Source of the DNA: Rhodocyclales bacterium
GTDB taxonomy: Bacteria; Pseudomonadota; Gammaproteobacteria; Burkholderiales; Rhodocyclaceae
Reading direction: 5' to 3'
NCBI GenBank assembly: GCA_016235765.1
Contig: JACRIZ010000068.1
Span: forward strand, 1 to 64,000
Length of the DNA stretch: 64,000 nucleotides
Notes under the pieces: generated by a model
The model's input: only the letters and a program-made list of their open reading frames with translations
What the model was told of the DNA's origin: nothing
Databases searched by the model: none
In this document: one piece after another, positions 52,901 through 61,467 of the stretch
Position numbering within the stretch: position 1 is the first letter of the stretch
Layout: every line of letters starts with the position of its first letter
Program-made: the position numbers and the translations under genes

Positions 52901-53244
52901 CCAACGGCAAGGTCGATCGTGCGGCACTGCCCGACCCGTTCCGAGGCGTGCAACGGACCGATCTTCAATTCACGCCACCGGCACCCGGACTTGAACAGGT
53001 CATGGCGCAAGTGTGGGCCGATCTGCTCAAGATCGAGCGTATCGGCGCCGACGACAACTTCTTCGAACTCGGCGGCCATTCCCTGCTATCGCTGCGGGTT
53101 GTAGCCGCGATCGAGAAGCAGACCGGTTGGCGCATGGACCCGCGCACGCTCTTCTTTCAGAACCTCAGACAGATTGCCGCTGCCGCGGCAGCCAATGCTG
53201 CAAAGACAGGACTTGCGCAATCGGAAGGATCCTGGCGAGGATGA
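49915..53244 (+). CDS. NRPS2: docking-C-A-PCP module, predicted glycine, no thioesterase
   Basis: 1109 residues from TTG. Residues about 1-52 form a second TubC-type docking domain (PQELIDHLDRLGVAMAAEDG, then RVNAARGQLNDELKAM). Condensation domain about 78-480 with HHIALDA (His206, catalytic His207; Ala replaces the final Gly of HHxxxDG). Adenylation domain about 515-1015: YTSGSTGRPKG at 665, FDIAGLE (Asp711, Ile712, Leu715), QATPATW, LCGGE, LYGPTETTIW, NGKVDR. The code reads D-I-L-Q-L-G-L-I-W-K, which I recall as the glycine code. PCP Ser1056 (GGHSLL) at about 1020-1090, then only a short tail. It is the last module, yet has no TE, reductase or terminal condensation domain. Chain release must therefore come from another protein. 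Confidence 0.95.
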   Translation: MNPQELIDHLDRLGVAMAAEDGRLRVNAARGQLNDELKAMIAEHKTELLSMLADRQRRREQGATAEHLLVTGAAPRLSLFQERLWVLNRLDPENSAYHMAALLPGTEAASVEQMIAAIHLVVRSHEILRSCVDDGDVPIPKLLPVEAVPIDVVDWRDHPEGRHEGELREMAESAVHRSFDLATQSPVRFTIFRLRDDRIATLVIAHHIALDAWSMSMLGQQIRVALNTGRCDPPPLQYATYAAWQHKTQDSARVDADLAWWKERLKGIPQTSAFPPDFTAPAKPSGATWGFHWDNELSQGLADLARANGATTYMALVAAMAIVLQRHTGQSDIVLGSPMGLRERPEFEVIIGPFVNLLVVRLDLSDDPTFSELLTRARNALLDAHDHRSVSFERLIEQLKPERSFGHGPIFQVALVQHNVPVDGAIPVAGGGAMHELTVFVRDAADGLVGAFEYRSDLYAEATIERIADQVQVLLGHAIANSQRPISTLSVLNPDARSRLIEGFNDTRVDLDDRIFVRQFEDRVKAAPHAIALVCHGEGTSYAELNARANRLARHLRALGAGAGSLIAVCMGRSAELLVALLAVQKAGAAYVPLDPGFPAERIAYMIEDSTASILLADEDSIASLDAPTSLRVIDLVRGATSWAGLDSADLVDAAAASDAAYVIYTSGSTGRPKGVAVSHGALSNFLGSMKREPGLTSADVLAAVTTISFDIAGLELYLPLLVGARIELVAREVASDGNALAQLLTSCAATVLQATPATWRLLIEADWRASVSGFRALCGGEALPRDLANALLERVDTLWNLYGPTETTIWSTVQQIEAGDADILIGRPIANTELYVLDRSGQPAPIGVAGEIWIAGTGVALGYHRRPELTAERFVPDPFSDRPGARMYRTGDLGRWTQDGRLHHLGRIDHQVKIRGFRIELGEIEAVLASHEAVRQAVVVAREAAPGDLRLVAYVAYAPGEDLTVSDVRRHLRRDLPDYMLPSVVVALDTIPLTPNGKVDRAALPDPFRGVQRTDLQFTPPAPGLEQVMAQVWADLLKIERIGADDNFFELGGHSLLSLRVVAAIEKQTGWRMDPRTLFFQNLRQIAAAAAANAAKTGLAQSEGSWRG

Positions 53245-54035
53245 CACCTTTCTACTTCGGCACGGGTTCGCGCCGACTATTTGGCTTGTATACGCCAGCG
53301 CGCGTCGGCGCCGTGGGCATTCGGTCTGTCGTGCTGTGCCCGGCATGGGGGCAGGAGTATCTGCGCGCCCACCGGTCGATGCGGCAACTGGCGAACATGT
53401 TGAACTCGGCGGGATTTCATGTCTTGCGTTTCGACTACTTCGGCACCGGCGATTCAGCCGGCGACATGACGCAGGCCGATTTGGCCGGCTGGGAAGGCGA
53501 TATCGGCGCTGCGATCGATGAGCTGAAGGACACTTGCGGCGCCTCGCGCGTCGCCCTGGTGGGTCTGCGCCTGGGCGGAGCCCTGGCAGCGCGCGTCGCC
53601 GCGCGGCGCGCAAGCGATGTCGATGCACTCGTACTGTGGGACCCGGTGGTGGATGGCCGCGCCTACGTCGATGAGATCATGCTGACCGGCAAGCAGAAAG
53701 CCCTGGGGCTGGGCCGATCCACCCAACGTGCCGCCGACCAGGGCGGCGGCCACGAAATCCTCGGATTTCCGCTCACGGAGCGCCTGGCCGATGACTTCAG
53801 CAAGATCGACGTGGCGGCGCAGATCGGTTCGGTGCGAGCCCGCACAGAGGTGGTCGTATCTCACACGCTCGCGTCGCATGGCGGACTGGCCGCGGCGCTG
53901 GCCGCGTATGCCGGTCAGCCGCCACGTGCAGTCGAACTGATTGAAAGCCAGGCGGCATGGATCAATGTCAAGGAAGTGGGCTCGGGTGCGGTACCGGTGA
54001 AGATCCTGCAGCGGATCGTGCAATGGTTGGCATGA
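53241..54035 (+). CDS. alpha/beta-hydrolase-fold protein with Arg at the nucleophile position
   Basis: 264 residues; ATG overlaps the NRPS2 stop. It has the look of the S33/Hydrolase_4 group close to the exosortase-A-associated hydrolase 2 type: an N-terminal GSRRLFGLY, LCPAWGQEYLRAHRSMRQLA, VLRFDYFGTGDSAGD, then the elbow GLRLGGALAA. The third residue of the elbow, normally Ser, is Arg110 (G-L-R-L-G). As far as I recall, this substitution is not unique to this protein, so it may be a family trait. Classical serine-hydrolase chemistry is doubtful; it could be a structural partner of the next gene, overlapping it by 4 bp. Position right after the terminal NRPS suggests a role in release or tailoring. 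Confidence 0.8.
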   Translation: MTPFYFGTGSRRLFGLYTPARVGAVGIRSVVLCPAWGQEYLRAHRSMRQLANMLNSAGFHVLRFDYFGTGDSAGDMTQADLAGWEGDIGAAIDELKDTCGASRVALVGLRLGGALAARVAARRASDVDALVLWDPVVDGRAYVDEIMLTGKQKALGLGRSTQRAADQGGGHEILGFPLTERLADDFSKIDVAAQIGSVRARTEVVVSHTLASHGGLAAALAAYAGQPPRAVELIESQAAWINVKEVGSGAVPVKILQRIVQWLA

Positions 54036-54910
54036 CGGATCGGATCAAGGAACAGGCCCATGTGCTTGGGCCACGCCAATCGTTGGTGGGAATTCTGTCG
54101 CCGGCAACGCCGGCGCCACGGGACGACATACCGTACGTCGTTGTGCTCAATGCCGGAATCATTCACCGGATCGGCCCGAATCGCATGAGCGTGAACCTGG
54201 CGCGGGAACTCTGCGCGCGCGGATTCAACGTGCTGCGTTTCGATCTTTCGGGCATTGGCGACAGCGATCCGCGCGAGGATGTTCTGCCTCCGCTCGAAGC
54301 AGCCACGGCCGACTTGCGCGAGGCGCTGGACTGGCTTGAACAGTCGCGTGGCGCGCGCCGGTTCGTACTGGTTGGCTTGTGCTCGGGTGCCGATCAGTCG
54401 GTCATTTATGGCGGCGATGATCGGCGCGTGATCGGCGTCGTGCTGCTCGATCCTTCGATTCCGCGCACAGGCCGCTTCTATCGCCGGCATTTCGCCACCC
54501 GGATGGTCAACGGTCGGACCTGGATGGCGATTCTTACCGGGCGCCACGCGCTGTGGGGAAAGCTGCTACGGCGAATCAGCCCCACGCCGCCGGAACCGGG
54601 CAACGCGCGCGATGTGGCCGTGGATAGTCCGGCCGTGCGCGCGTTTCTTGAAAACGCCTATCAGATCGCGATCAAGCAGGGCATCAAAATCCTGGCCGTG
54701 TTCGCCGGTGCCGGTGGGCGCGAATACGAGATCAACTATCGAGAGCAGATTCTCGATGCCTTCCCGAATGTGAACTTCGGCACATCGATGGAAATCGAAT
54801 ACGTCAAGCAATCCGATCACACTTTTTCGTTTGAAAGCGATCGCCGGCACGTGATCAAGGTGATCGTCGATTGGGTGCAGAAAATTGCCGGCAATCCGGA
54901 TCGGACCTGA
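54032..54910 (+). CDS. alpha/beta-hydrolase with Cys elbow, candidate release enzyme
   Basis: 292 residues; ATG at 54032 overlaps the previous stop by 4 bp, and a longer upstream frame is a shadow. Fold landmarks: VVVLNAGIIHRIGPNR, VLRFDLSGIGDSD, the elbow GLCSGAD with Cys117 at the nucleophile position (G-x-C-x-G; Ser118 is next to it), and a C-terminal SDHTFS with His263. It resembles the exosortase-A-associated hydrolase 1 type, which is found paired with a hydrolase-2 protein as here. Cys nucleophiles do occur in thioesterase-like release enzymes, so this is my first candidate to cleave the chain from the NRPS2 carrier. That is inference from position and residues only. It is the last gene of the operon, 34 bp before a terminator. 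Confidence 0.82.
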   Translation: MTDRIKEQAHVLGPRQSLVGILSPATPAPRDDIPYVVVLNAGIIHRIGPNRMSVNLARELCARGFNVLRFDLSGIGDSDPREDVLPPLEAATADLREALDWLEQSRGARRFVLVGLCSGADQSVIYGGDDRRVIGVVLLDPSIPRTGRFYRRHFATRMVNGRTWMAILTGRHALWGKLLRRISPTPPEPGNARDVAVDSPAVRAFLENAYQIAIKQGIKILAVFAGAGGREYEINYREQILDAFPNVNFGTSMEIEYVKQSDHTFSFESDRRHVIKVIVDWVQKIAGNPDRT

Positions 54911-57853: not shown

Positions 57854-57881
57854 AACAAACCCCGCCGGAGCGGGGTTTGTT
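57854..57881. terminator. strong bidirectional terminator between dut and the fcc-type operon
   Basis: Perfect 12-bp stem (AACAAACCCCGC pairing with GCGGGGTTTGTT) with a CGGA tetraloop. A-rich sequence precedes it and TTGTT follows, so it can end transcription from both convergent units. Confidence 0.9.
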
Positions 57882-57904: not shown

Positions 57905-59206
57905 TCAGGTCGACATTTCGGTCAGGATGTTCTTGAGCCAGCTATGGGCGTAGATCGCCTCCATCTTGGCGGCCGAGAAGTCGCCGGGCGAGACGCCGCC
58001 CGAATTCGGCACCGCGATGATCTTGCCTTCCTTGACCGCATAGACCGCCGCCACGCTCACCGCCTCGTGCTCGGTGATGTAGCTGTAGCAGGTGTTGATG
58101 CCGGACATCTCCGAGGTCTCCTTGCCGTTCATCATGGCCACGATGTTCATGGCGCAGACCTTGGCTTCGGAGTTGGCCGAGTAGCCCGACTTCGGCATGG
58201 CGCCGGCGATCGACGAGTCGCCGATCACATGGACGTCCTTGTGCAGCGTCGACTCGAAGGTGGTGGCGTTGACCGGGCACCACTTCTTGTCCTCGCCGAC
58301 CAGGCCGGCTTGCGCGGCGATGGCGGCCGCCTTCTGCGGCGGAATGATGTTGACCACGTCGCCCTTGACCTCCTCGATGCCTTCGATCAGCACGGTCTTG
58401 GTCTTGGCGTCGACTTCCGTGACCTTCTTTGCGGCGCGGTAGTCGATGATGCCGGCGTAGTTGTCCTTCCAGCCCTTGGTGAACAGCGGACCCTTGGAGG
58501 CGATGGCCGGGTTGGCGTCGAGGACGATGATCTTCGACTTCGGCTTGTGGTGCTTCAGGTAATGGGCGATCATGCTGGTCCGCTCGTAGGGTCCGGGCGG
58601 GCAGCGGAACGGCGACAGCGGCACGGACATGACGACGGTGCCGCCGTCGTGCATCGCTTCCAGTTGCTTGCGCAGCAGGATCGTCTGCGGGCCGGCCTTC
58701 CAGGCGTGCGGCATCACTTCCATGGCCGCGGCGTCATAGCCCTTCATCTCGTCGAGGCGGAAGTCGATGCCGGGCGAGACCACCAGGCGGTCGTACTTGA
58801 GCGTGCCCTTGGAGGTGACCACCGTGTGCGCCGCCGCGTCGATGGCGGTGACCTCGGCCTGCACGACCTTGATGCCGTGGTTGGCGGCCAGCTTGTCGTA
58901 CTTGATGGTCAGCGGCGTCAGGTCCTTGAGGATGCCGCCGATGTAGAGGTTGCTGAACGGGCAGGAAACGAAATGGTCGTTGCGCTCGACCAGCACCACC
59001 TCGATGCTCGAATCGAGCATGCGGACGTACTTGGCGGCAACGGTGCCGCCGTAGCCGCCGCCGATCACGACCACGCGACGCTTGGTCTTGGGCATGATCT
59101 CCGCGGCGCTGCCGGACGAAACTGCCGGGGCGCCAGCGCAGCCGGCCAGGGCGACGCCGGAGGCGCTGCCGAGAATCTTGATGAAACTTCTGCGATCCAA
59201 AGTCAT
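57905..59206 (-). CDS. FAD-dependent sulfide dehydrogenase-like flavoprotein (FccB family), Tat-exported
   Basis: 433 residues. Periplasmic flavoprotein related to the FAD subunit of flavocytochrome c sulfide dehydrogenase, which oxidises sulfide and passes electrons to a cytochrome c partner. Seen: Tat motif DRRSFIK (4-10), a lipobox-like LAGC (20-23), FAD fold VVVIGGGYGG (45-54), SCPFSN with Cys82 in the region where FccB binds FAD covalently, RCPPGPYERT (Cys202) and KWCPVN (Cys310), the likely redox cysteine pair, and a C-terminal FCSD flavin-binding region ending SWLKNIL. AAGGGGGAG precedes the ATG. It lies 12 bp downstream of a dihaem cytochrome, the expected partner. Sulfide as substrate is inferred from the family. 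Confidence 0.9.
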   Translation of the reverse strand: MTLDRRSFIKILGSASGVALAGCAGAPAVSSGSAAEIMPKTKRRVVVIGGGYGGTVAAKYVRMLDSSIEVVLVERNDHFVSCPFSNLYIGGILKDLTPLTIKYDKLAANHGIKVVQAEVTAIDAAAHTVVTSKGTLKYDRLVVSPGIDFRLDEMKGYDAAAMEVMPHAWKAGPQTILLRKQLEAMHDGGTVVMSVPLSPFRCPPGPYERTSMIAHYLKHHKPKSKIIVLDANPAIASKGPLFTKGWKDNYAGIIDYRAAKKVTEVDAKTKTVLIEGIEEVKGDVVNIIPPQKAAAIAAQAGLVGEDKKWCPVNATTFESTLHKDVHVIGDSSIAGAMPKSGYSANSEAKVCAMNIVAMMNGKETSEMSGINTCYSYITEHEAVSVAAVYAVKEGKIIAVPNSGGVSPGDFSAAKMEAIYAHSWLKNILTEMST

Positions 59207-59218
59207 GTCGTCTCCCCC

Positions 59219-59800
59219 TTACTTGTTGACGCTGGCATAGAAGTGCAGCAGGGCGTCCACATCTTCCTTGGACAGCGGCTTCACCTTCTCGGCCATCTTC
59301 TCGGGCATCTTGCGCTTGCCGGACTGGTACAAGTCCATCTGGATCTGCAAGTAGGGCAGCCACTGGCTGGCCATCACCGGCGTGTCGTCCTTGCCTTCCT
59401 TGCCGTCTTCCAGGTGGCAGCGCGAGCAGTTGGCTTCCTGCAGGCTGGCGCCCTTGGCGGCCTTGGCGGCGTCGACGGTCTGGTGCGTGAAATGCACCTT
59501 CTGCGCGGCGAAGAAGCCGCCGATCATGTCGATCTGCTCGTCGCTGTAACCCTTGGCGAGCCGGCCCATGACGGTGGCCGGGCGCTCGCCCGACTTGAAC
59601 TTCTTCATGGCGTCGACGATCGCGGTCTTCGACTGCCCGGCCAGGCTGGGCATGGTCGCGCCGGCGCTGCCGCCGTGCGTGCCGTGGCAGCCGGCGCAGG
59701 CGTTGGACAACATCGCCGCGGTCGGGCCGGCAGCGGATGCCGCGGCCGAAATTGTCAAAGCGCCGACTGCAAGCGCCAACGTGCTCCATCTTTGCTTCAT
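59219..59800 (-). CDS. dihaem cytochrome c (c4-like, FccA-type partner)
   Basis: 193 residues from ATG at 59800, chosen because GGAGGAG lies 6 nt upstream; an ATG at 59815 would add five residues. Signal peptide about 1-24 (ends AAASA). Two class I-type haem sites: CAGCH (Cys35-His39) and CSRCH in the second half, each domain with a downstream methionine candidate. The tandem layout (TMPSLAGQ, YSDEQIDMIGGFFAAQK, VMASQWLPYLQIQ, KMPEKMAEKV) is that of cytochrome c4 and of the cytochrome subunit of flavocytochrome c. Adjacent to the FAD subunit, so it probably accepts its electrons in the periplasm. Confidence 0.92.
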   Translation of the reverse strand: MKQRWSTLALAVGALTISAAASAAGPTAAMLSNACAGCHGTHGGSAGATMPSLAGQSKTAIVDAMKKFKSGERPATVMGRLAKGYSDEQIDMIGGFFAAQKVHFTHQTVDAAKAAKGASLQEANCSRCHLEDGKEGKDDTPVMASQWLPYLQIQMDLYQSGKRKMPEKMAEKVKPLSKEDVDALLHFYASVNK

Positions 59801-59851
59801 CTTGGTCTCCTCCATGAGATGGCAATGAACCGCTAGGTACTGCTTCCCCGC

Positions 59852-60757
59852 CTACTGCTTGCTAACGTTGTAATAGTTCTTGACGCCCTCGACGGCCTTG
59901 TCGAGGCCGAACTGGTAACCGAGGGACACGTAGTGGTAGCGCGCTTCGCTGAAATTCTCGTGAATCGCGAAGCCGAAGTTGTAGGTCTTGCCCGCGGCGA
60001 TGGCGTGGTCGCCCTTGCCGCCGCCGGCCAGCGATCGCTCGAAGGTGACGACCCACTTGTTGCCTTCCTTCTTGCCTTCCGCCTTGACGAGGCCCTTGCC
60101 GCCTTCCATGACGCGCTTGTCGGCAACGTAGCCGTCGACCGGCTTCTCGCCCTTGCCGCTGCGGAACTGGATCAGGTCGTAGAACTTGCCGCCGGCGAGG
60201 TCGGCGTCCTTGATGTACTTGGTTTTCTTGGGATCCTTGCCGTCCTTCATGGTGCGCAGGTCGGTATGGCAGGTCGCCCAGCAGCCGTTCAGGTCGGCGC
60301 CGGCCACCGTGCCGCCGCCGTCGAACAGCATGGTCAGCTTGGCTTCGTTCTTCTTGTCGGTCTTGTCGCCGCCGGCGGCGGGCGATTCCCACTCGACGCG
60401 CACGTACAGCTTGTCGCCGTCGTGGGCGGCCTTGAAGCTCGCCTGTACCCAGCCGCCCTTGCCGGCGGGCGGCTTCGGCTCCAGGACCGACTTCGACTGG
60501 CCGACCGGCTTGCCCGCGACGATGGCGTTGCCGACGTCGTTGGCATCGCCTTCATGGCACTTGGCGCAGGGACGCTTCTTGTCCACGATGTCGGGCACGG
60601 CGGAGTGGTCCGCCTTGTTCATCACCCACTCGTAGGCGGACTGGCCGGGGTAGAACAGCTTGAACTTGCGTTCGGTAACCTTGCTCCAATCGGGGGCGGC
60701 GGCAAACGCGCCGCTGACCATGCACGCGCCCGTCACTGCCAAGGCAATCTTCTTCAT
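59852..60757 (-). CDS. periplasmic cytochrome with ethylbenzene-dehydrogenase haem-binding-like domain
   Basis: 301 residues from ATG at 60757, preceded by AGGAG at 8 nt; longer upstream frame rejected. Signal peptide about 1-20 (MKKIALAVTGACMVSGAFA). One canonical haem site CAKCH (Cys64-His68), and a second CWATCH (Cys159, Cys163, His164) that has three residues between the cysteines instead of two. Beta-strand-rich sequence (KLYVRVEWESP, EAKLTMLFDGGG, NKWVVTFERSLAGG, KTYNFGFAIHEN, YHYVSLGYQFGLD) fits the EB_dh haem domain found in DMSO-reductase-family gamma subunits and related cytochromes. No molybdoenzyme gene is visible here. Lies between the NapC-type and c4-type genes, 65 and 51 bp away, so probably part of one electron-transfer chain. 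Confidence 0.82.
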   Translation of the reverse strand: MKKIALAVTGACMVSGAFAAAPDWSKVTERKFKLFYPGQSAYEWVMNKADHSAVPDIVDKKRPCAKCHEGDANDVGNAIVAGKPVGQSKSVLEPKPPAGKGGWVQASFKAAHDGDKLYVRVEWESPAAGGDKTDKKNEAKLTMLFDGGGTVAGADLNGCWATCHTDLRTMKDGKDPKKTKYIKDADLAGGKFYDLIQFRSGKGEKPVDGYVADKRVMEGGKGLVKAEGKKEGNKWVVTFERSLAGGGKGDHAIAAGKTYNFGFAIHENFSEARYHYVSLGYQFGLDKAVEGVKNYYNVSKQ

Positions 60758-60822
60758 CAATCGACTCCTGGTGCCGTAAGGTGGTCTGGAAAAACTGAAC
60801 AACAATTGACGCAACCGCCGGC

Positions 60823-61467
60823 TCAAGTCGCCGGCTGGTCCGCAGGGGCCTGCTCGAGCGCCTGGTGCACCGGCTTGTGGGCGATGCCCTTGTGGCATTC
60901 GATGCAGGTCTTGCCGTCTTCGACGGCGCCTTCGTGCTTGACCACGGAGCGGTCCTTCTGCTTCTCGGGGTCCATGTACTTGAAGTCATGGCAGTTGCGG
61001 CATTCCTTGGAATCCCGTTCCTCCATGCGCGCCCACACCCGCTTGGCCATCGTCAGTCGGTGCGCCTCGAACTTTTCGGGCGTATCGACGACGCCGGTGA
61101 TCTTGCCGATCACGTCCCGCGCAGCCATCAGCTTCTGGAAGGACTTGAACATGTAGTCGGTCGGCGTCTTGCTGCTGGCGACGTGGCAGTCGGCGCACTG
61201 CGCCGCGGCGCCGCTGCGGTTCTTGAAGTGGACCGTCTTCTTGAGTTCTTCGTACGGGATGCTCATCTCGTGGCAGGAGAGGCAGAACTCGGACCGGTTG
61301 GTGTATTCCATGCCCATGTTGAGCGCACCCCAGATCACGATGCCCAACACCGAGCCGACGCCCAGCATGCGCAGCATGGAGCATTTCGGTGGATTGAGAA
61401 GCCGGACGAACCAGCTTCTGCGTTGCTCTGAAGGGCCCTGGTCCTGGGGCGGGGTGTGGTCTGCCAT
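60823..61467 (-). CDS. NapC/NirT-family membrane-anchored tetrahaem cytochrome c
   Basis: 214 residues. Quinol-oxidising cytochrome that carries electrons from the membrane pool to periplasmic enzymes. One N-terminal membrane helix about 31-52 (MLRMLGVGSVLGIVIWGALN) anchors it. Four haem motifs: CLSCHEM (Cys62), CADCH (Cys91), CRNCH (Cys156), CIECH (Cys188), the usual NapC/NrfH number and spacing, with Met68 after the first haem. GAGGAG lies 8 nt before the ATG. First gene of the four-gene minus-strand set, downstream of a long intergenic region that probably holds its promoter. The direction of electron flow cannot be read from sequence. Confidence 0.93.
   Translation of the reverse strand: MADHTPPQDQGPSEQRRSWFVRLLNPPKCSMLRMLGVGSVLGIVIWGALNMGMEYTNRSEFCLSCHEMSIPYEELKKTVHFKNRSGAAAQCADCHVASSKTPTDYMFKSFQKLMAARDVIGKITGVVDTPEKFEAHRLTMAKRVWARMEERDSKECRNCHDFKYMDPEKQKDRSVVKHEGAVEDGKTCIECHKGIAHKPVHQALEQAPADQPAT

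What the first reader, a model, noticed from the sequence alone, without database searches (positions are those of the whole stretch)
57905..61467. Four-gene cytochrome operon linking a NapC-type quinol oxidase to an Fcc-like flavoprotein
NapC/NirT tetrahaem, EB_dh-type cytochrome, c4-like dihaem and FccB-like FAD protein are read in this order on one strand. Sulfide dehydrogenase normally gives electrons to cytochrome c, whereas NapC-type proteins normally take them from quinol to a reductase. Having both suggests either sulfide electrons fed back to the quinone pool or an Fcc-like protein working as a reductase.
Basis: partly seen in the sequence, partly recalled or inferred. Interest (0 to 1): 0.6.

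Follow-up and report, generated by a model that had tools for sequence, protein, structure and literature searches.

The report
Sulfide dehydrogenase operon wired to quinones
A conserved four-gene operon in sulfur-oxidising betaproteobacteria ties a sulfide-oxidising enzyme (FccAB) to a membrane cytochrome module previously shown to work with nitrate and perchlorate reductases, which suggests a second route, besides the known enzyme SQR, from sulfide into the respiratory quinone pool.

Summary
Minus-strand genes 61467→57905 are a NapC/NirT-family tetrahaem protein, an EB_dh-fold dihaem cytochrome, a true FccA (nearest solved relative: Allochromatium FccA, not c4) and a true FccB with all catalytic cysteines. 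The order is conserved: 76 of 80 related loci show all four genes, and the other four stop at contig ends. In 20 of 79 loci NapC and EB_dh are one polypeptide. In nine loci soxYZ sits just upstream on the same strand. Within the family, 30 of 31 operon carriers have dsrA, against 16 of 169 non-carriers.

NapC+EB_dh is a known module: PcrQ/PcrO and NapC/NapO carry electrons from quinol to perchlorate and nitrate reductases in Azospira suillum (PMC5845722). Paralogous pairs lie in nir/nap clusters of these relatives. Its link to FccAB was not found in the papers searched.

Best explanation: sulfide (or polysulfide, or Sox-bound sulfur) → FccAB → EB_dh → NapC → quinone, a two-component analogue of SQR. 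The reverse, quinol-driven sulfur reduction, is less likely: 13 of 31 carriers lack the menaquinone genes tested, and carriers are sulfur oxidisers. Most carriers (25/31) also have SQR, so the benefit is unclear. Direction is inferred, not shown.

The parts
60823..61467 (-). NapC/NirT-family membrane-anchored tetrahaem cytochrome (214 aa; N-terminal transmembrane helix, four CXXCH); proposed quinone-reactive protein
   Evidence: PF03264 215 bits, TIGR02161 218 bits (below that model's 310.6 cut-off); forms a clade with the other fcc-operon NapCs
59852..60757 (-). EB_dh-fold periplasmic cytochrome (301 aa), PcrO/NapO-like; CXXCH at residues 64-68 and CXXXCH at 159-164, both invariant; proposed shuttle between NapC and FccA
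   Evidence: PF09459 101 bits; AlphaFold model pLDDT 77.8, top fold hit EbdC 2ivf_C E=8.6e-11, then NXR subunit C; alignments A1, A2
59219..59815 (-). FccA, dihaem cytochrome subunit of flavocytochrome c sulfide dehydrogenase (198 aa; an internal start at 59800 is possible)
   Evidence: 1fcd_C E=1.3e-41 over the whole mature chain; two CXXCH in 79 of 79 relatives
57905..59206 (-). FccB, FAD subunit of flavocytochrome c sulfide dehydrogenase (433 aa, twin-arginine-like N-terminus); Cys82, Cys202 and Cys373 correspond to Cys42 (FAD thioether), Cys161 and Cys337 (redox pair) of A. vinosum FccB
   Evidence: PF21706, PF09242; 5n1t_A, 1fcd_A; Cys42, Cys161, Glu167, Cys337 and Trp391 equivalents invariant in 76 of 76
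57860..57875 (.). G+C-rich hairpin CCCCGCCGGAGCGGGG with flanking A and T runs between dut (+) and fccB (-), probably a shared terminator
   Evidence: read from sequence; terminator-like site on the minus strand, although such sites are no more frequent here than in shuffled sequence

Best explanation
The operon encodes a periplasmic sulfide dehydrogenase (FccAB) whose electrons are carried by a dedicated EB_dh-fold dihaem cytochrome to a membrane-anchored NapC-family tetrahaem protein, which reduces the quinone pool. It is a two-component, FCSD-based counterpart of SQR, feeding sulfide (or polysulfide, or Sox-derived sulfane sulfur) electrons in at the quinone level for use by quinol oxidases, quinol-dependent nitrate reduction, or reverse electron flow. 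Shown here: gene content, conserved order, active-site residues, NapC-EB_dh fusions, sulfur-gene neighbours and co-occurrence. Shown elsewhere: NapC+EB_dh pairs exchange electrons with quinol and with periplasmic enzymes (PMC5845722). Inferred: contact between FccA and EB_dh, the direction of flow, and the exact sulfur substrate.
For: FccB keeps the covalent-FAD cysteine and the redox cysteine pair in 76 of 76 relatives, so it should be a competent sulfide dehydrogenase. The four genes stay together in 76 of 80 loci, and in 18 of 20 loci selected by FccB alone. NapC and EB_dh are one polypeptide in 20 of 79 loci, which argues for direct NapC-EB_dh transfer. In nine loci soxYZ lies just upstream on the same strand; 19 of 80 loci have a Sox, Sulf_transp or DsrE2 neighbour. 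30 of 31 operon carriers have dsrA against 16 of 169 non-carriers (Fisher 7e-23; at genus level 14 of 15 against 5 of 50, 3e-9), and 29 of 31 have soxB. 13 of 31 carriers have neither MenA nor MenD above cut-off and none has futalosine-pathway MqnA, so the operon must also work with ubiquinone. A second NapC lineage, without EB_dh, sits beside FccAB elsewhere (L237, L238, L241, L271). The dsrAB of Ca. Desulfobacillus denitrificans, a carrier, is of the oxidative type (PMC8402940), and an fccA of a Desulfobacillus genome rose on sulfide exposure (PMC12138975). A NapC-family protein taking electrons into the quinone pool is the accepted model for hydroxylamine oxidation (cM552, PMC3701875).
Against: NapC-family proteins with tested function mostly oxidise quinol; ImoA of Sideroxydans, proposed to reduce quinone, oxidised quinol when tested (PMC9600427). 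The only tested NapC+EB_dh pairs run from quinol to a reductase. 25 of 31 carriers also hold SQR, so a sulfide-to-quinone route already exists and the operon does not replace it. 17 of 31 carriers, the window genome among them, have MenA, so a low-potential quinone may be available there. No expression, complex or redox data exist for these proteins.
Confidence: 0.6

Rival explanations
1. Reductase direction: NapC oxidises quinol, EB_dh relays the electrons, and FccAB reduces polysulfide, elemental sulfur or a protein-bound persulfide or disulfide (for example on SoxYZ).
For: All tested NapC+EB_dh pairs (PcrQ/PcrO, NapC/NapO) run from quinol to the enzyme (PMC5845722), and ImoA oxidises quinol (PMC9600427). 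17 of 31 carriers have MenA. soxYZ is co-directional just upstream in nine loci.
Against: The sulfur/sulfide couple (about -270 mV) lies far below ubiquinone (about +100 mV) and below menaquinone (about -75 mV) (general knowledge). 13 of 31 carriers lack the menaquinone genes tested. Carriers are dsrA- and soxB-bearing sulfur oxidisers.
Confidence: 0.17
2. Junction model: NapC-EB_dh carries quinol electrons, and FccAB carries sulfide electrons, into a common periplasmic acceptor (nitrite reductase, N2O reductase or a cytochrome c oxidase). The operon then makes a joint donor set rather than a sulfide-to-quinone chain.
For: FCSD is known to reduce small periplasmic cytochromes c (PMC12010331). 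Paralogous NapC-EB_dh pairs serve nirS and nap clusters in the same family. SQR is already present in most carriers.
Against: The four genes are almost never separated, and no acceptor gene is conserved beside them. The fcc-operon NapC and EB_dh have diverged from the nir/nap pairs as a separate clade, which suggests specialisation to FccAB.
Confidence: 0.15
3. Mere co-residence: the two gene pairs are functionally separate and are kept together by vertical inheritance in one lineage.
For: The operon occupies the same chromosomal place (beside dut, coaBC and radC) in 47 of 80 loci, so part of the conservation is shared descent. FccB forms one clade.
Against: The four genes stay together in other surroundings too, including Gallionellaceae next to soxYZ and Comamonadaceae. 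A separate NapC lineage is paired with FccAB elsewhere. Sequence divergence is large (EB_dh down to about 50% identity) while gene order is fixed.
Confidence: 0.08

Closest known systems
PcrQ/PcrO and NapC/NapO of Azospira suillum PS (PMC5845722)
   Same: A NapC-type tetrahaem protein plus an EB_dh-fold dihaem cytochrome encoded with a periplasmic redox enzyme; the pairs are interchangeable electron carriers between quinone pool and enzyme.
   Different: Partner enzymes there are molybdenum reductases (perchlorate, nitrate). Here the partner is the sulfide dehydrogenase FccAB, so the expected net direction is reversed, and NapC and EB_dh are often fused.
Flavocytochrome c sulfide dehydrogenase FccAB (A. 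vinosum 1fcd, T. tepidum 3vrd, T. paradoxus 5n1t)
   Same: FAD subunit with covalent-FAD cysteine and redox cysteine pair; dihaem FccA of the A. vinosum type.
   Different: Described FCSDs hand electrons to small soluble cytochromes c (PMC12010331); this one is locked in an operon with a membrane quinone-reactive cytochrome and its shuttle.
Hydroxylamine:ubiquinone redox module (HAO - c554 - cM552; PMC3701875)
   Same: A periplasmic dehydrogenase feeding the quinone pool through a NapC-family tetrahaem protein, with a reverse-running version proposed.
   Different: A different dehydrogenase (octahaem HAO) and a different shuttle (c554); a mechanistic analogy only.
Sulfide:quinone oxidoreductase (SQR)
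   Same: The same proposed overall reaction, sulfide to quinone; related flavoprotein superfamily.
   Different: SQR is one membrane-bound flavoprotein without haem. FccB is clearly on the FCSD side (432 against 38 bits), and most carriers have SQR as well.
nirS and nap clusters with NirT/NapC + EB_dh in the same family (L114-L127)
   Same: Paralogous NapC + EB_dh pair, about 50% identical, beside periplasmic reductase genes.
   Different: Separate NapC clade; no FccAB; partner is NirS or NapA.

Membership tests
Flavocytochrome c sulfide dehydrogenase (FccAB) | FCSD flavoprotein with central and flavin-binding FCSD domains | tested here: met
   PF21706 157 bits and PF09242 67 bits, both above cut-off; 5n1t_A E=2e-128
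Flavocytochrome c sulfide dehydrogenase (FccAB) | Covalent-FAD cysteine and redox-active cysteine pair | tested here: met
   Cys42/161/337 equivalents at window residues 82/202/373, invariant in 76 of 76 relatives
Flavocytochrome c sulfide dehydrogenase (FccAB) | Adjacent cytochrome c subunit | tested here: met
   Dihaem FccA, 1fcd_C E=1.3e-41, 12 bp upstream of fccB
Flavocytochrome c sulfide dehydrogenase (FccAB) | Sulfide-dependent cytochrome c reduction | not testable with these tools
   needs purified protein
NapC/NirT superfamily | N-terminal membrane anchor and NapC/NirT domain with four CXXCH | tested here: met
   PF03264 215 bits (cut-off 24.1); four CXXCH and a hydrophobic N-terminal segment in the sequence
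NapC or NirT proper (NCBIfam subfamily TIGR02161) | Score above the subfamily cut-off | tested here: not met
   217.8 bits against a cut-off of 310.6: a superfamily member, not NapC or NirT in the strict sense
NapC/NirT superfamily | Quinol oxidation or quinone reduction | not testable with these tools
   no biochemical data
PcrO/NapO-type EB_dh cytochrome | EB_dh domain with the EbdC fold | tested here: met
   PF09459 101 bits; top fold match 2ivf_C, E=8.6e-11
PcrO/NapO-type EB_dh cytochrome | Two c-type haem motifs | tested here: met
   CXXCH plus CXXXCH, both invariant in A1 and A2; haem attachment at the CXXXCH site is assumed
PcrO/NapO-type EB_dh cytochrome | Sequence relationship to A. 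suillum PcrO and NapO | not tested
   those sequences were not retrieved; the link rests on shared domain, haem number and NapC neighbour
Sulfide:quinone oxidoreductase | FccB closer to SQR than to FCSD | tested here: not met
   FCSD 432 bits, SQR 38 bits
Operon | Co-transcription of the four genes | not testable with these tools
   same strand, gaps of 65, 36 and 12 bp; conserved order; no transcript data

The most novel reading that the evidence does not exclude
A dedicated FCSD-based sulfide:quinone redox module: FccAB, an EB_dh-type shuttle (or a NapC-EB_dh fusion) and a NapC-family quinone reductase form one electron-transfer chain in the sulfur-oxidising betaproteobacteria surveyed. This would make NapC-EB_dh a reversible adaptor used with reductases and with dehydrogenases alike.
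Probability: 0.5. Interest if true: 0.7.

Novelty: new variant of a known kind. Interest (0 to 1): 0.58.

Why it matters
FCSD is described as a soluble enzyme that bypasses the quinone pool, with SQR as the quinone-linked alternative. If this operon works as proposed, that division does not hold in a large group of sulfur oxidisers common in denitrifying and groundwater systems, and genome-based energy budgets that book fccAB electrons to cytochrome c would be wrong for them. It also offers a clean test of whether a NapC-family protein can run as a quinone reductase, a question left open for Fe(II) oxidisers such as Sideroxydans.

Tried and rejected
Idea that the operon replaces SQR: rejected, 25 of 31 carriers have a strong SQR hit, against 9 of 16 dsrA-bearing non-carriers. 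Idea that all carriers are ubiquinone-only, which would have excluded the reductase direction: rejected, 17 of 31 have MenA and 13 of 31 MenD over cut-off; the argument now rests on the 13 that lack both. A first count of 35 carriers by FccB score alone was corrected to 31 after neighbourhoods showed that G078, G085, G141 and G174 have FccAB without NapC/EB_dh. Two NapC rows on very long branches (L076, L091) were traced to NapC-EB_dh fusions truncated to their EB_dh end by my script; they do not bear on the clades named. A regular-expression miss of the second redox cysteine was resolved by alignment: it is invariant. Literature searches combining FCSD with NapC/NirT or EB_dh terms found no description of this operon; subscription journals and preprints are not held. 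Promoter scanning gave nothing above chance.
Full report
What is there. On the minus strand, 61467 to 57905, four ORFs follow one another with gaps of 65, 36 and 12 bp. The first is a NapC/NirT-family protein with an N-terminal hydrophobic segment and four CXXCH motifs (PF03264 215 bits; it stays below the cut-off of the NCBIfam napC_nirT subfamily, 218 against 311 bits). The second is an EB_dh-domain cytochrome with one CXXCH and one CXXXCH (PF09459 101 bits). The third is FccA: its best solved relatives are the dihaem subunits of the A. vinosum and T. tepidum enzymes (146 and 142 bits), far ahead of cytochrome c4 (53 bits). The fourth is FccB (432 bits to 5n1t_A, 362 bits to 1fcd_A, 38 bits to SQR). 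The genes lie between dut (plus strand) and a divergent ABC exporter gene; a G+C-rich hairpin separates dut and fccB.

Active site. In an alignment of 76 operon FccBs with 1fcd, the equivalents of Cys42 (FAD thioether), Cys161 and Cys337 (redox pair), Glu167 and Trp391 are invariant. FccA has two CXXCH in 79 of 79 relatives. The enzyme should therefore be a working sulfide dehydrogenase; activity itself was not tested.

Conservation. A scan of named genomes with an alignment of 13 EB_dh sequences gave 80 loci, from Rhodocyclaceae, Sulfuritalea, Sulfurisoma, Thiobacillus, Gallionella, Sideroxydans, Ca. Desulfobacillus denitrificans, Ca. Nitricoxidireducens and some Comamonadaceae bins. NapC-EB_dh-FccA-FccB occurs in this order in 76; the other four are cut by contig ends. 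Starting instead from FccB avoids selecting on EB_dh: of 20 loci with FccB at 62% identity or more, 17 have all four genes, one is cut after EB_dh, one is cut just upstream of fccB, and one is FccAB alone; four loci with FccB at 53-57% have no NapC or EB_dh. FccB of the operon is one clade, with a few FccAB-only copies inside it. Quick trees with SH-aLRT support only.

Fusion. In 20 of 79 loci, mostly the Sulfuritalea clade, NapC and EB_dh are a single polypeptide of 537-636 aa joined by an Ala/Pro-rich linker. This is the strongest sequence argument that NapC and EB_dh exchange electrons directly.

The module is known; the partner is new. In Azospira suillum PS, PcrQ (NapC-type) with PcrO (EB_dh-type, dihaem) and NapC with NapO pass electrons from quinol to perchlorate and nitrate reductases, and double mutants lose both respirations (PMC5845722). 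In the family of the window, paralogous NapC-EB_dh pairs at about 50% identity sit in nirS clusters (NirS confirmed by PF02239, 485 bits, in L127) and, by inspection, in nap clusters. Fcc-operon NapCs and nir/nap NapCs form separate clades. The predicted EB_dh structure (pLDDT 77.8) matches EbdC first and nitrite oxidoreductase subunit C next.

Substrate context. In nine loci (Gallionellaceae and relatives) soxYZ ends roughly 40-150 bp upstream of napC on the same strand; SoxY and SoxZ pass their NCBIfam equivalog cut-offs. 19 of 80 loci have SoxY/SoxZ, a Sulf_transp transporter or DsrE2 close by. Among 200 genomes of the family, 31 carry the operon; 30 of these have dsrA against 16 of 169 others (Fisher 7e-23), and 29 have soxB against 54 of 169 (6e-11); counted by genus, 14 of 15 against 5 of 50 for dsrA (3e-9). 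Genomes are related, so the genus figure is the fairer one, and it is still not corrected for phylogeny. The window genome has dsrA (C33), soxB (C133) and SQR (C112). The dsrAB of Ca. Desulfobacillus denitrificans is of the oxidative type and its annotated fccAB, DSYM_09470-80, lies, judged by locus-tag order, at the operon reported here (L044); that paper does not mention napC (PMC8402940). An fccA of a Desulfobacillus genome was up-regulated on sulfide exposure in another study (PMC12138975); whether it is the operon copy was not checked.

Direction. Fcc enzymes pass electrons to cytochromes (PMC12010331). NapC-family proteins usually oxidise quinol, and ImoA did so when tested (PMC9600427), but in ammonia oxidisers the NapC relative cM552 is taken to feed the quinone pool, and its reverse has been proposed too (PMC3701875). 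With ubiquinone, reduction of sulfur by quinol is strongly uphill (standard potentials, general knowledge), while sulfide to quinone is downhill. Futalosine-pathway genes are absent from all carriers; MenA is over cut-off in 17 of 31 and MenD in 13 of 31; 13 have neither. So the oxidative direction is compelled only in part of the carriers, and is the more likely one overall. Against a simple story, 25 of 31 carriers also have SQR, so the module is an addition to SQR. Possible reasons, all untested: a periplasmic active site, another affinity, or a different substrate such as polysulfide or SoxYZ-bound sulfur.

A second, related arrangement. A shorter NapC lineage, separate in the NapC tree, stands beside FccAB without EB_dh in L237, L238, L241, and outside the family in L271; L246 is a further, more divergent case. 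Other FccAB copies in the family sit beside a nine-haem protein with a weak b561-like membrane domain (L166, L168, L169; in L167 beside a nine-haem protein whose membrane part was not checked), a c552-type multihaem protein (L165), or a molybdenum-enzyme-like cluster (L164, L236). FCSD thus seems to be coupled to membrane or multihaem partners more than once.

Verdict. It is a new variant of known parts: a known adaptor (NapC + EB_dh) on a known enzyme (FccAB), in a combination not found in the papers searched.

Noticed in passing
window 4401-53244: Large modular polyketide/non-ribosomal peptide cluster: KS-AT-KR and KS-AT-DH-MT-ER-KR type modules and a condensation-AMP-binding module, followed by two alpha/beta-hydrolase genes (53013-54910). 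Unusual in a small sulfur-oxidiser genome.
   Followed up: partly
L130 2873-8771 (own genome, contig C11): A longer EB_dh protein (208 bits to PF09459) stands near two dihaem c4-like cytochromes and a protein whose N-terminus looks like the outer-membrane iron oxidase Cyc2 (no Pfam match); possibly an iron-oxidation or extracellular electron-transfer cluster.
   Followed up: partly
L166, L167, L168, L169: FccAB (FccA not called by the gene finder in L167) beside a protein with nine CXXCH; in L168 that protein has a weak b561-like membrane domain (PF01292 below cut-off): possibly another quinone-linked FCSD.
   Followed up: partly
L237, L238, L241, L246, L271: Short NapC-like tetrahaem protein beside FccAB without EB_dh; in L238, L241 and L271 a further, ankyrin-like gene lies between; L237 and L241 have SoxCD-like genes next to them by inspection.
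   Followed up: partly
L165 and L164/L236: FccAB next to a c552/NrfA-type multihaem protein (PF02335 197 bits) and next to a molybdenum-enzyme-like cluster with a 4Fe-4S subunit, respectively.
   Followed up: no
L270, L272, L278, L281: In genomes outside the order, FccAB lies near an eight-haem cytochrome.
   Followed up: no
L128 6404-8058 and L129 7695-9017 (own genome): Two further FccB-like proteins in the window's genome: one with a monohaem FccA, one without a cytochrome partner.
   Followed up: partly
L051, L095, L218, L219, L222: FccB matches stretch over about 2.7 kb, suggesting tandem fccB copies in the operon.
   Followed up: no
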